Of a stretch of 57,780 bases of DNA, positions 32,563 to 40,059 are shown in pieces (position 1 is the stretch's first letter; each line of letters starts with the position of its first letter). The DNA comes from Muribaculaceae bacterium (GTDB lineage: Bacteria > Bacteroidota > Bacteroidia > Bacteroidales > Muribaculaceae), in contig JAFSPZ010000036.1 of assembly GCA_017451225.1 (NCBI GenBank), forward strand, positions 1 through 57,780, read 5' to 3'. Made by a program: the position numbers and the translations under genes. The notes under the pieces are model-generated. The model worked only from the letters and a program-made list of their open reading frames with translations, was not told the DNA's origin and searched no databases.

Positions 32563-32936
32563 TTAACTCGCCTGAGTTTTCTTGATGTACATATACTTGG
32601 GATAGCGGTCTAGGACGAAGAGCATTACTGGGCAGAACCAGATTTCGCGCCCGATGCCTGGCAGACCGTTGACGGTGTAGAATGAACCACCTGTAAGGGA
32701 ATGCGCACCTTGTACCAGTTTGCGGCATATCCCGGCAGGTCTTTACGTTTGCTGCACGGAATGACATCGACATGAGTTGTCTTACCGTCATCGCTCAAGA
32801 AATCACATAGTTTATCGGCACCAGCCACCATGAGCAGGTTGTGATGGTCAAATGGCCAGTTGGGGAAATCAACATACCATAGCCCGTCATCCTCGTTATT
32901 GAACTTGAGTTGGTATTCACTTTGCTTGCCAAACAC
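32563..32936 (-). pseudogene. frameshifted small gene (possibly DUF6717-like)
   Basis: Two reading frames together make one protein-like sequence. Frame one starts at a GTG at 32936 and reads to LPGYAANWYKV. At about 32700-32715 the sense moves to another frame, which continues GGSFYTVNGLPGIGREIWFCP and ends at the TAA at 32563. The WFCPVML and YPKYMYIK ending recalls DUF6717 proteins, but I am not sure of that match. No ATG is found in frame upstream, although the frame stays open to about 33045, so the 5' end also looks damaged. Either a decayed gene or, less likely, an assembly error. Confidence 0.55.
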
Positions 32937-33055
32937 GCTGCTGGCAATAGTTTGAGCTCCATTTAATAAATCACTGATTGAATAATTAAAAATTTCGTCA
33001 TTTAAAAGATTAATAAAAAGGGAAGTGGAGAGAAAACAGGAAAGTGAGGATTAAT

Positions 33056-34177
33056 TTACATTTTCAAGCCAAGAATTTCCCAAAACTCGGCTGGCAGTGC
33101 CACGTTCTCGAGACGTACGCAGTTTTTAAACAACTGAGCCACATCATTGATATTGTGACCGGCAATGCCGCAGCCCACTCGGGTGACGAGGAACCGCAGC
33201 TCGGGATGCTGTTCGGCAAATGCGGTGAAGCGTTGCACCGCTTCGGCCATCTGCTCAAGCGGACAAGTAGTTGGGATAGCATAGCTCTTGCCTTGCAGGC
33301 CCTCGCCTTGTCCCCATACGGCACCGAAGCGGGCCATTGCAACGCTTGCCGCTCCACCGCTGTGAAATCCCTGCGGATTGCTGCCGAAGACAAAGATCTC
33401 GCCATCTCTTAAGTCCTCGATTTGGTTAGGAGTAACGCGGTTCTCGTAATACTCGCTTGCCATCTGACGCTTGCGCTTTAACCATTCCTCTTTTGATTGT
33501 CTGCGACCTTGGCGATACTCCATGTCCATCTTGCGGTAGTAATTGCGTTTTGCCGAACTCTCACGATTCCAGGTGGCACCCACTCCTGCCACGTCATGGC
33601 TGAACTCTATCACATTATTAATGGATAGATTGAAACTCACCTGCTTCACGTCGTGTGCGCTTCCCATGTAGGAGAACGACCAACCCTCTTGTGTTAGTTT
33701 CTCAATGAGAGCCTTCAATGCTGCACCACTCCACTCTTGCGACGAGTTCTCATAACCGTCGGTGAGCACAGTAACCACTGCGGTGGCATCTTCATCATCT
33801 TTAATGTACTTGTACAATTCAGTTAACGACTTGCCCATAGCATCATATAGGGGAGTGCAACCGCCAGGTTGATAGTTATTGAAGTCCCCAACCTCGCTAA
33901 TGGGCATACAATTAATCAATGTGTGTACATTCTTAGAAAACATAATATTCTTAAAAGTGACTAATGTGAGAAAATGCTCCTGCGTGTCGGCAAATTCCCT
34001 CTGTGCGCTACGAATAGATTTGATAGTCTCATTCACCCCATCCATGGTAGCTTTCTTGAGCGATTCCATCGAGCCGCTCTCATCCACAATGATGAGGTTG
34101 TAAATGCGTGCTTTCTTGGCACCTTCTTTTGATTTTTTCATTTCTTGTGGTCTTTCAGTTGTGTTTTTTGTTTTCAT
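33056..34177 (-). CDS. von Willebrand A domain protein fused to a macro-like domain
   Basis: With the ATG at 34177 (after the purine-rich AAAAAGAG) this is a 373-residue cytoplasmic protein. Residues 25-215 form a vWA domain with a full metal-ion site: DESGS (32-36), the Thr of GGCTPLYDAMG and LTDGYEN. The C-terminal part (about 250-373) reads IFVFGSNPQGFHSGGAASVA, then GQGEGLQGKSYAIPT and VTRVGCGIAG, a pattern found in phage A1S_2505-like proteins and related to macro/ADP-ribose-binding folds. A basic helical linker joins them. Function unknown; ADP-ribose or NAD-linked signalling is inference. Three palindromic operators lie upstream. The frame is open to 34378, but the extra residues cross the promoter and operators and are unlikely to be translated. 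Confidence 0.75.
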   Translation of the reverse strand: MKTKNTTERPQEMKKSKEGAKKARIYNLIIVDESGSMESLKKATMDGVNETIKSIRSAQREFADTQEHFLTLVTFKNIMFSKNVHTLINCMPISEVGDFNNYQPGGCTPLYDAMGKSLTELYKYIKDDEDATAVVTVLTDGYENSSQEWSGAALKALIEKLTQEGWSFSYMGSAHDVKQVSFNLSINNVIEFSHDVAGVGATWNRESSAKRNYYRKMDMEYRQGRRQSKEEWLKRKRQMASEYYENRVTPNQIEDLRDGEIFVFGSNPQGFHSGGAASVAMARFGAVWGQGEGLQGKSYAIPTTCPLEQMAEAVQRFTAFAEQHPELRFLVTRVGCGIAGHNINDVAQLFKNCVRLENVALPAEFWEILGLKM

Positions 34178-34330
34178 CTCTTTTTGATCTTTGATAGGTT
34201 TGTAACTCTTGTTGATGCTATCGGCGCTGCCGCAACCGTTACCAATGGTCCCGTCGCTGGCATTTAAGCCAATCATTTTCTTGTAAAAGCTTAATGAAAT
34301 CATAATCGAATTTGTGTCAAAATTTATTGT

Positions 34331-34403
34331 TGTGTAATTTTTACGCAACAAAATTAGTGTGTAAATTTTACACATCAAAATATTTTACGTGTAATTATTA
34401 CAC
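34331..34403 (-). promoter_or_regulatory. promoter with three GTGTAA-N3-TTACAC operators
   Basis: Minus-strand promoter: TTTG at 34379-34376, a 19-bp spacer, TAATTTTG at 34356-34349. Palindromes: GTGTAAATTTTACAC at 34359-34373, which extends by one pair and fills almost the whole spacer; GTGTAATTATTACAC at 34389-34403, just upstream; and a one-mismatch copy (GTGTAA, TTT, TTACGC) at 34332-34346, just downstream of the start. Centres are 27 and 30 bp apart. This is the layout of a repressor that blocks the polymerase. Confidence 0.8.
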
Positions 34404-34608
34404 ATTTAACATATTTTAATGTTTGCCATATCAAAAACGAAAGCTTCTACTTATCAAGAATCAACCCATATGCCCCTGTTTCCGCAAAAACTCCTTTTTG
34501 ATTTTGCCAGCGCTATAGAATGCCTAATCAATTGAAATACAGACCACTTATTTTCTAAAATGGTTTTGATTTTGATTTAATGGTGTTTATTTTATTTATA
34601 TAATGTGA

Positions 34609-39400: not shown

Positions 39401-39489
39401 GATTTTTTGTTTTAAGTTTAATAGTTAATAATTCAAACCACAAAAATATAACAAAAATCTGACATTTCACTGGTCCATTTTGGTCCTTT

Positions 39490-39850
39490 TTCAAAAAAAC
39501 CAGAGGCGAGGCAAATTTTGTCCTTATGTTCTTATGTCCAAAAAAACAAGCGCGGCCCCAAAAAAAGACAAGAGCCACAAGAGCAGAACAAGAAAAACAA
39601 GAAATCTTGTAACTCCTGCCAAATCCTGTCACTCCTGTCAAAAAACCAGAGGCGAGGCAAATTTTGTCCTTATGTTCTTATGTCCAAAAAAACAAGCGCG
39701 GCCCCAAAAAAAGACAAGAGCCACAAGAGTAGAACAAGAAAAACAAGAAATCTTGTAACCCCTGCCAAATCCTGTCCCTCCTGTCAAAAAACCAGAGGCG
39801 AGGCAAATTTTGTTCTTATGTTCTTATGTCTAAAAACCCCAGGCGCAGCC
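39490..39850. repeat. 146-bp direct repeats, array 1
   Basis: The landmark CCAGAGGCG occurs at 39500, 39646 and 39792, an exact 146-bp period. Each unit includes ATGTTCTTATGTCC, GCGGCCCC or GCGCAGCCCC, an ACAAGA-AA-TCTTGT palindrome and CCTGTCACTCCTGTC. Because 146 is not a multiple of three, each copy shifts frame; the Lys/Arg-rich open frames here are not genes. Decayed pieces of the unit recur at about 39870-39900 and 39987-40017. This fills most of the gene-free stretch 39401-40104. Confidence 0.9.
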
Positions 39851-40059
39851 CCATTATGCATTGTGCATTGAATAAGTTCTTATGTCCAAAAAGGGAAGGC
39901 TAGCTCACCATCGCCCGCAATTGTCCTTAATACCTCAAGCCGAATGGCTAAAAATATAGATTGTCCTTAATTGTCTTAAAAACTATGTTCTTATGTCCAA
40001 AATCCACCCGGCGCAGCCAAAAACTAACAACTAAAAACCAATAACTAAAAACTATTTTG

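What the first reader, a model, noticed from the sequence alone, without database searches (positions are those of the whole stretch)
34331..34403. Three palindromic operators at the vWA-macro gene, one filling the promoter spacer exactly
Seen: GTGTAA-N3-TTACAC occurs three times, with centres near 34339, 34366 and 34396. The middle copy extends to 8+1+8 bases and lies exactly inside the 19-bp spacer between TTTG and TAATTTTG on the minus strand. Inference: a dedicated repressor keeps this gene off until a signal arrives. The tight design points to a product that is needed rarely or is harmful. An NAD- or ADP-ribose-sensing regulator (for example of NrtR type) is one candidate because of the macro-like domain, but nothing in the window identifies it.
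Basis: partly seen in the sequence, partly recalled or inferred. Interest (0 to 1): 0.8.

Follow-up and report, generated by a model that had tools for sequence, protein, structure and literature searches.

The report
Three repressor sites guard ADP-ribose-linked gene
Three matching palindromes cover the promoter of a gut-bacterium gene of unknown function, and related genomes indicate that they are docking sites for an NrtR-type repressor that probably lets go when an ADP-ribose-like molecule builds up.

Summary
The palindromes are real: two exact GTGTAA-N3-TTACAC copies plus one with a single mismatch, at the stated centres; the middle one fills the 19-bp promoter spacer with one base at each side. 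With the motif relaxed to TGYGTAA-N3-TTACRCA and one mismatch allowed, the 2.28-Mb assembly has four sites: these three and one on the promoter of an NrtR-type (Nudix plus winged-helix) gene on another contig (reversed control 3). In Bacteroidales, 26 of 41 loci encoding the vWA-A1S protein have such operators (reversed control 0 of 41), and 26 of 41 hold an NrtR-type gene, one further locus an AraR-like one. Geometry is fixed around the -7 box; the spacer operator is an extra. The motif equals the GTGT-N7-ACAC operator of the solved BtAraR-DNA complex, and the main recognition-helix contacts are kept. Best reading: an autoregulated NrtR-family repressor, sensing an ADP-ribose-type ligand, holds the gene off. 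ADP-ribose-removal systems with Nudix repressors were already predicted (PMC9503650); the operator code and this regulon were not found in the searchable literature.

The parts
34388..34404 (.). upstream operator, TGTGTAATAATTACACG on the minus strand, just upstream of the -33 element
   Evidence: one mismatch to TGYGTAAN3TTACRCA
34376..34379 (-). TTTG, candidate -33 element
   Evidence: consensus from passages of PMC7366714
34358..34374 (.). middle operator inside the 19-bp -33/-7 spacer
   Evidence: same place in G060, G156, L132, L133 and L163
34349..34356 (-). TAATTTTG, candidate -7 element
34331..34347 (.). downstream operator over the expected transcript start
   Evidence: no mismatch to TGYGTAAN3TTACRCA
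33056..34303 (-). controlled gene: vWA-like N-terminal part with DxSxS motif plus A1S_2505-type C-terminal domain (415 aa from ATG 34303)
   Evidence: NF049995 E 2.3e-40; PF13519 only 14.5 bits, below its cut-off of 27; N-termini of orthologues align
32566..33020 (-). DUF6717-like gene remnant downstream, in two reading frames
   Evidence: tblastn with G060 and G156 proteins; PF20475 on the G060 protein

Best explanation
The three palindromes are operators for the NrtR-family (Nudix plus winged-helix) transcription factor encoded on contig C9 (36224-36910, minus) of the same assembly. The factor binds as a dimer to GTGT-N7-ACAC. In the common arrangement two dimers flank the core promoter, one just upstream of the -33 element and one over the start; the window's lineage has a third in the -33/-7 spacer. 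Middle and downstream sites start 27 bp apart, about one dimer footprint, so three dimers could tile the promoter and exclude RNA polymerase. The factor also controls its own gene. When an ADP-ribose-type molecule rises it binds the Nudix domain, the dimer leaves and the vWA-A1S gene is expressed. Shown: sites, geometry, conservation, linkage to nrtR, match to a solved operator, conserved recognition-helix contacts. Inferred: binding by this protein, repression, ligand and biological role.
For: Four near-match sites in the assembly, three here and one on the nrtR promoter overlapping its -7 box. 26 of 41 named vWA-A1S loci have an operator within one mismatch, reversed control 0 of 41, shuffle mean 0.0; top 6-mer inverted repeat found without a prior motif is GTGTAA-N3-TTACAC, 12 loci. 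NrtR-type gene in 26 of 41 loci plus one AraR-like, most frequent neighbour; divergent with two sites between in L155. Zero-mismatch motif 26 times in 20 of 198 genomes against 9 for the control, 20 of 26 before nrtR, vWA(-A1S), ADP-ribosylglycohydrolase or DUF1810 genes by my reading. -7 box at offsets -6, -9, +46, +47 (26, 20, 21, 19 of 250 oriented contexts). BtAraR operator is GTGT-N7-ACAC; residues matching its K179, R180, N181, K184 are R, R, N, K in the C9 protein and R 58, R 56, N 59, K 42 of 59 homologues. ADP-ribose-type pocket arginine in 58 of 59, the exception being AraR-like.
Against: No binding or expression data. 15 of 41 vWA-A1S loci lack an operator within one mismatch by the automatic rule; the NrtR homologues of G141 and G129 have no site within two mismatches in the stretches fetched, and G068 (nrtR 73% identical) has none within one. 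At one mismatch the reversed control is not rare: 29 against 45 sites in 16 genomes, 3 against 4 in the window's own. Six of 26 zero-mismatch sites are not at such genes, among them a well-spaced pair in G002, where no NrtR homologue was found at E 1e-20. The closest solved relative senses arabinose. R183 and the wing contacts of BtAraR are not conserved or were not tested.
Confidence: 0.85

Rival explanations
1. The sites are bound by another dimeric regulator (for example of the CRP/FNR kind), and nrtR is merely a further target or a neighbour.
For: TGTGT...ACACA resembles CRP-like half-sites (recalled, from no call); binding by NrtR is untested; a well-spaced pair occurs in G002, where no NrtR homologue was found.
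Against: NrtR-type genes are the only regulator recurring in 4 or more of the 41 loci, as far as labels and inspection of the 7 clusters show. The motif matches half-sites and spacing of the BtAraR operator. The site is odd-length with a 7-bp gap between GTGT and ACAC.
Confidence: 0.08
2. The NrtR-family protein binds here but senses a sugar or another metabolite, as AraR and XylR of Bacteroides do, so the link to ADP-ribose is indirect.
For: The closest solved relative is BtAraR (E 1.3e-48, against 6.7e-25 for Shewanella NrtR). NrtR-family AraR and XylR of Bacteroides were assigned to sugar pathways (passages of PMC3878776).
Against: The pocket-closing glycine of AraR is arginine in 58 of 59 homologues, as in ADP-ribose-binding NrtR; the catalytic Nudix glutamates lost in AraR are kept. 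Operon partners include ADP-ribosylglycohydrolase, SIR2 and PARG-type genes.
Confidence: 0.2
3. AT-rich chance palindromes, or an RNA hairpin rather than operators.
For: The region is AT-rich, and the one-mismatch motif has background hits.
Against: 0 of 100 shuffles reach the count; conservation; fixed place relative to the -7 box. Two of the three sites lie upstream of the expected start, so they would not be in the transcript.
Confidence: 0.01

Closest known systems
BtAraR (BT0354) and its operator, NrtR family (PMC4666351; PDB 5bs6, 5dd4, 5ddg, 5deq)
   Same: Nudix plus winged-helix architecture; GTGT-N7-ACAC operator; recognition-helix R180, N181 and K184; tandem operators in promoters
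   Different: AraR senses arabinose and controls sugar genes; its pocket glycine and leucine are arginine and glutamate here; targets here are ADP-ribose-linked genes
Classical NrtR (Shewanella, Synechocystis, Mycobacterium; passages of PMC4666351 and PMC6800001)
   Same: ADP-ribose-responsive repressor family; autoregulation in M. smegmatis
   Different: They control NAD metabolism genes and have an impaired Nudix signature; the M. smegmatis palindrome is different. Here no NAD biosynthesis gene is a visible target and the Nudix signature of the C9 protein is intact
ADP-ribosylglycohydrolase-centred host systems predicted to counter viral ADP-ribosylation (PMC9503650 section 3.8)
   Same: Nudix one-component regulator, ADP-ribosylglycohydrolase, phosphatase, vWA and Macro/NADAR accessory genes; proposed to be off until ADP-ribose appears
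   Different: Lineages named there are actinobacteria, planctomycetes and proteobacteria, and 'operator' does not occur in the text. Here the vWA is fused to an A1S_2505-type domain and, in the window's genome, lies apart from nrtR and from the glycohydrolase gene

Membership tests
NrtR family (regulator) | N-terminal Nudix plus C-terminal NrtR winged-helix domain | tested here: met
   PF00293 76.5 bits and PF21906 63.8 bits, both over cut-off
NrtR family (regulator) | palindromic operator overlapping target promoters and the regulator's own promoter | tested here: met
   half-sites and spacing equal BtAraR's
NrtR family (regulator) | impaired Nudix signature, as reported for known members | tested here: not met
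   strict signature intact in the C9 protein and in 33 of 59 homologues; R64, E65, E68, E69 kept in 58-59 of 59, E56 in 53, G71 in 38
NrtR family (regulator) | release from DNA by ADP-ribose | not testable with these tools
   only indirect: pocket arginine in 58 of 59
Classical NrtR regulon | control of NAD biosynthesis or salvage genes | tested here: inconclusive
   the four near-match sites in the assembly lie at the vWA-A1S gene and nrtR; the assembly is 85.5% complete and weaker sites were not assigned
AraR (arabinose regulator) | G89 and L67 filling the nucleotide pocket | tested here: not met
   R and E in the C9 protein; AraR-type residues only in one of 59, L140_9
ADP-ribosylglycohydrolase-centred host system (PMC9503650) | Nudix regulator, ADP-ribosylglycohydrolase and vWA gene together | tested here: inconclusive
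   met in relatives, e.g. L096, L097, L114, L149; in the window's own genome the three are on different contigs and the glycohydrolase gene has no near-match site
Macro domain (target's C-terminal domain) | match to the Macro family | tested here: inconclusive
   no PF01661 match; hhalign with 11 Macro sequences probability 21%, P 0.0011, motifs in register; vWA control P 0.019

The most novel reading that the evidence does not exclude
A self-resetting alarm: the NrtR-type repressor keeps a working Nudix active site, so it both senses and destroys its inducer (free ADP-ribose). It thereby times the expression of a small gene set that deals with ADP-ribosylated macromolecules, for example after attack by phage or rival toxins, and the third operator in the window's lineage raises the threshold for switching on.
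Probability: 0.3. Interest if true: 0.75.

Novelty: new variant of a known kind. Interest (0 to 1): 0.58.

Why it matters
It gives a concrete regulator, operator code and promoter geometry for a group of ADP-ribose-linked genes in gut Bacteroidales whose control had only been predicted for other lineages, so the idea that such genes are switched on by ADP-ribose becomes testable with a gel shift and a reporter. The operator is also a search key for further members, such as DUF1810 genes and stand-alone vWA genes.

Tried and rejected
Considered and rejected: chance repeats; RNA hairpin (two sites lie upstream of the expected start); CRP-type site (7-bp gap, no recurrent CRP gene seen); arabinose sensing (pocket residues).

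Led nowhere: a search for the motif letters in print (14 papers hold three of four terms, 10 listed, none relevant by title). A search for the A1S_2505 or DUF6717 names gave two Acinetobacter papers. The profile of the target against solved structures gave weak hits only (best 2.6e-05, in the vWA part). PADLOC gave no match for the target. The ADP-ribosylglycohydrolase control is invalid because one row of that set is fused to the same A1S domain; only the vWA control counts.

Caveats on counts. One search used 41 of 80 named loci; the other 39 did not yield one plus-strand ORF with both domains (L156, which has nrtR and operators, was lost to the ORF caller). Its operon rule left out sites within two mismatches that lie at nrtR in L139, L141 and L170. 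One of the 27 homologues it counts (L140) is AraR-like. Five named loci are contigs of the unnamed panel (L135, L138, L142, L145, L146, by equal contig length), and some are near-duplicates (L156-L158), so the sets are not independent; the 59 regulators include such duplicates. The assignment of sites to gene classes was by eye, with Pfam checks; G095 contig C42 rests on match positions.

Full report
Observation. The stretch 34331-34404 holds three 17-bp palindromes with centres 34339, 34366 and 34396. Two match GTGTAA-N3-TTACAC exactly; 34332-34346 has one mismatch. Read on the minus strand: upstream operator, TTTG, one base, middle operator, one base, TAATTTTG, one base, downstream operator, then 27 bases to the ATG at 34303. 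TTTG and TAnnTTTG are the -33 and -7 elements described for Bacteroides (passages of PMC7366714). At one mismatch the window has 3 matches against a shuffle mean of 0.10. In the 2.28-Mb assembly (85.5% complete) the two exact copies are the only exact matches.

The regulator. The NrtR winged-helix profile finds one gene in the assembly: C9:36224-36910 minus, 229 aa, with Nudix and NrtR_WHD domains over their cut-offs. Its promoter carries TGCGTAAATAATACACA, overlapping TACCTTTG and ending 6 nt before the ATG. With TGYGTAA-N3-TTACRCA and one mismatch allowed the assembly has four sites: the three of the finding and this one. The reversed control has 3 at this threshold, so it is the places, not the number, that carry the argument.

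Unnamed panel. Among 198 genomes of the family the relaxed motif without mismatch occurs 26 times in 20 genomes, the reversed control 9 times in 8. By my reading, 20 of the 26 lie before vWA-A1S (7), nrtR (5), ADP-ribosylglycohydrolase alone or with nrtR (3), vWA (3), a phosphatase-glycohydrolase operon (1) or a DUF1810 gene (1); 6 do not (G002 two, G028, G041, G096, G112). The four nearest full-length orthologues (G060, G156, G135, G122; 66-75% identical) all have operators. In G017, G146, G180, G193 and G049 nrtR lies immediately upstream of the vWA-A1S gene. In 16 selected genomes, one mismatch allowed, there are 45 sites against 29 for the control; G068 has none.

Named panel. A scan of GTDB genomes with an alignment of 13 such proteins returned 80 loci whose titles are Bacteroidales or Bacteroidetes-type MAGs and isolates, with one plain 'bacterium'. 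In 41 one ORF holds both domains. An operator within one mismatch lies before the gene or its operon in 26 of 41 (29 of 41 within two), the reversed motif in 0 of 41 at either threshold, shuffles 0.0 on average. An NrtR-family homologue is in 27 of 41 loci; the one in L140 is AraR-like. Counting exact 6-mer inverted repeats without a prior motif, GTGTAA-N3-TTACAC ranks first (12 loci). NrtR homologues are the most frequent neighbour (27 of 41), then ADP-ribosylglycohydrolase (11 of 41); the other four clusters seen in 4 or more loci do not look like regulators by eye. In L155 the two genes are divergent with two sites between them. Fifteen of 41 loci lack a site by this rule; for 8 of them (L136, L137, L143, L145, L146, L147, L160, L164) no nrtR lies in the stretch held either.

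Geometry. In 250 oriented contexts (each palindrome read both ways) TAnnTTTG starts 6 nt (26) or 9 nt (20) before the site, or 46 (21) or 47 nt (19) after it; the next commonest offset has 9. A count anchored on 1257 TAnnTTTG contexts and on the bare GYGT-N7-ACRC half-sites gives the same main peaks (37, 36, 23, 22). The usual design is operator, promoter, operator, with starts mostly 52-57 bp apart; a further class is 65 bp (7 pairs). A middle operator in the spacer is seen in the window, G060, G156, L132 and L133 and imperfectly in G135, some copies with two mismatches. A distant locus, L163 (38% identical in the vWA part), has the same triple arrangement with the middle site directly before TATATTTG, so it is either old or arose twice. 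In the six clear cases middle and downstream sites start 27 bp apart.

Molecular fit. In the BtAraR-DNA complex the operator reads GTGT at positions 7-10 and ACAC at 18-21, i.e. GTGT-N7-ACAC; the authors write that the contacts define a GTGT motif and that the dimer covers 25 bp (PMC4666351, section 15 read). The motif here has identical half-sites and spacing. Contacts K179, R180, N181 and K184 correspond to R, R, N, K in the C9 protein; over 59 homologues these are R 58, R 56, N 59 and K 42. R183 is variable; wing contacts were not tested.

Ligand. The closest solved relative senses arabinose. But AraR G89, which closes the nucleotide pocket, is an ADP-ribose-contacting arginine (R98) in Shewanella NrtR (section 14 of PMC4666351) and is R in 58 of 59 homologues here. 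The one exception, L140_9, also has the AraR-type residues L67 and K179 and serves as an internal contrast. Nudix residues R64, E65, E68 and E69 are kept in 58-59 of 59, E56 in 53; the strict signature is intact in 33 of 59, the C9 protein included, whereas it is reported impaired in AraR and NrtR regulators (passages of PMC4666351), and M. smegmatis NrtR showed no hydrolase activity (passages of PMC6800001). nrtR operons of relatives hold ADP-ribosylglycohydrolase, SIR2, microbial PARG, DUF1810 and DUF6939 genes; the last has a sub-threshold NADAR match.

What is known. PMC9503650 section 3.8 (read) predicts host systems built on ADP-ribosylglycohydrolases with Nudix or WYL repressors, phosphatases and vWA domains, induced by ADP-ribose, as a counter to viral ADP-ribosylation. 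The present circuit fits that proposal and is not a new kind of system. Searches for an operator, a Bacteroidales version or the target protein found none in a library of open-licence papers that lacks two of the original NrtR papers. What appears new is the operator code, the fixed promoter geometry, control of an unlinked vWA-A1S gene and the extra spacer operator.

Open points. The C-terminal domain matches NF049995 (A1S_2505 family phage non-structural protein), not Pfam Macro; a comparison with 11 Macro sequences is weak but in motif register. In the window's genome a glycohydrolase and a SIR2 gene lie on other contigs without near-match sites. Whether the product is harmful or rarely needed cannot be judged from sequence.

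Noticed in passing
window 32566-33020, minus: The DUF6717-like gene behind the vWA-A1S gene is in two reading frames here, while G060 and G156 have single ORFs. Described only.
   Followed up: partly
L098 (G002:C18) 7334 and 7391: A zero-mismatch operator pair 57 bp apart in a genome with no NrtR homologue found at E 1e-20; no ADP-ribose-type gene recognised beside it.
   Followed up: partly
L222 (G041:C17) 4768 and 4823: An operator pair 55 bp apart before a 366-aa protein with an Endoribonuclease L-PSP (RidA-type) domain, a possible further target.
   Followed up: partly
L112 7390-8790; L117 6729-7790; L123 2411-4714; L122 2301-3872; L173 4131-5375: The A1S_2505-type domain is fused to microbial PARG, DUF1810 or ADP-ribosylglycohydrolase-like parts in relatives (L122 and L173 by BLAST label or eye).
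   Followed up: partly
L163 4849-4920: The triple-operator promoter recurs in a distant locus with the same 27-bp step between middle and downstream site.
   Followed up: yes
window 39480-39871, plus: Overlapping ORFs whose translations contain the same stretches more than once, suggesting a repeated DNA block.
   Followed up: no
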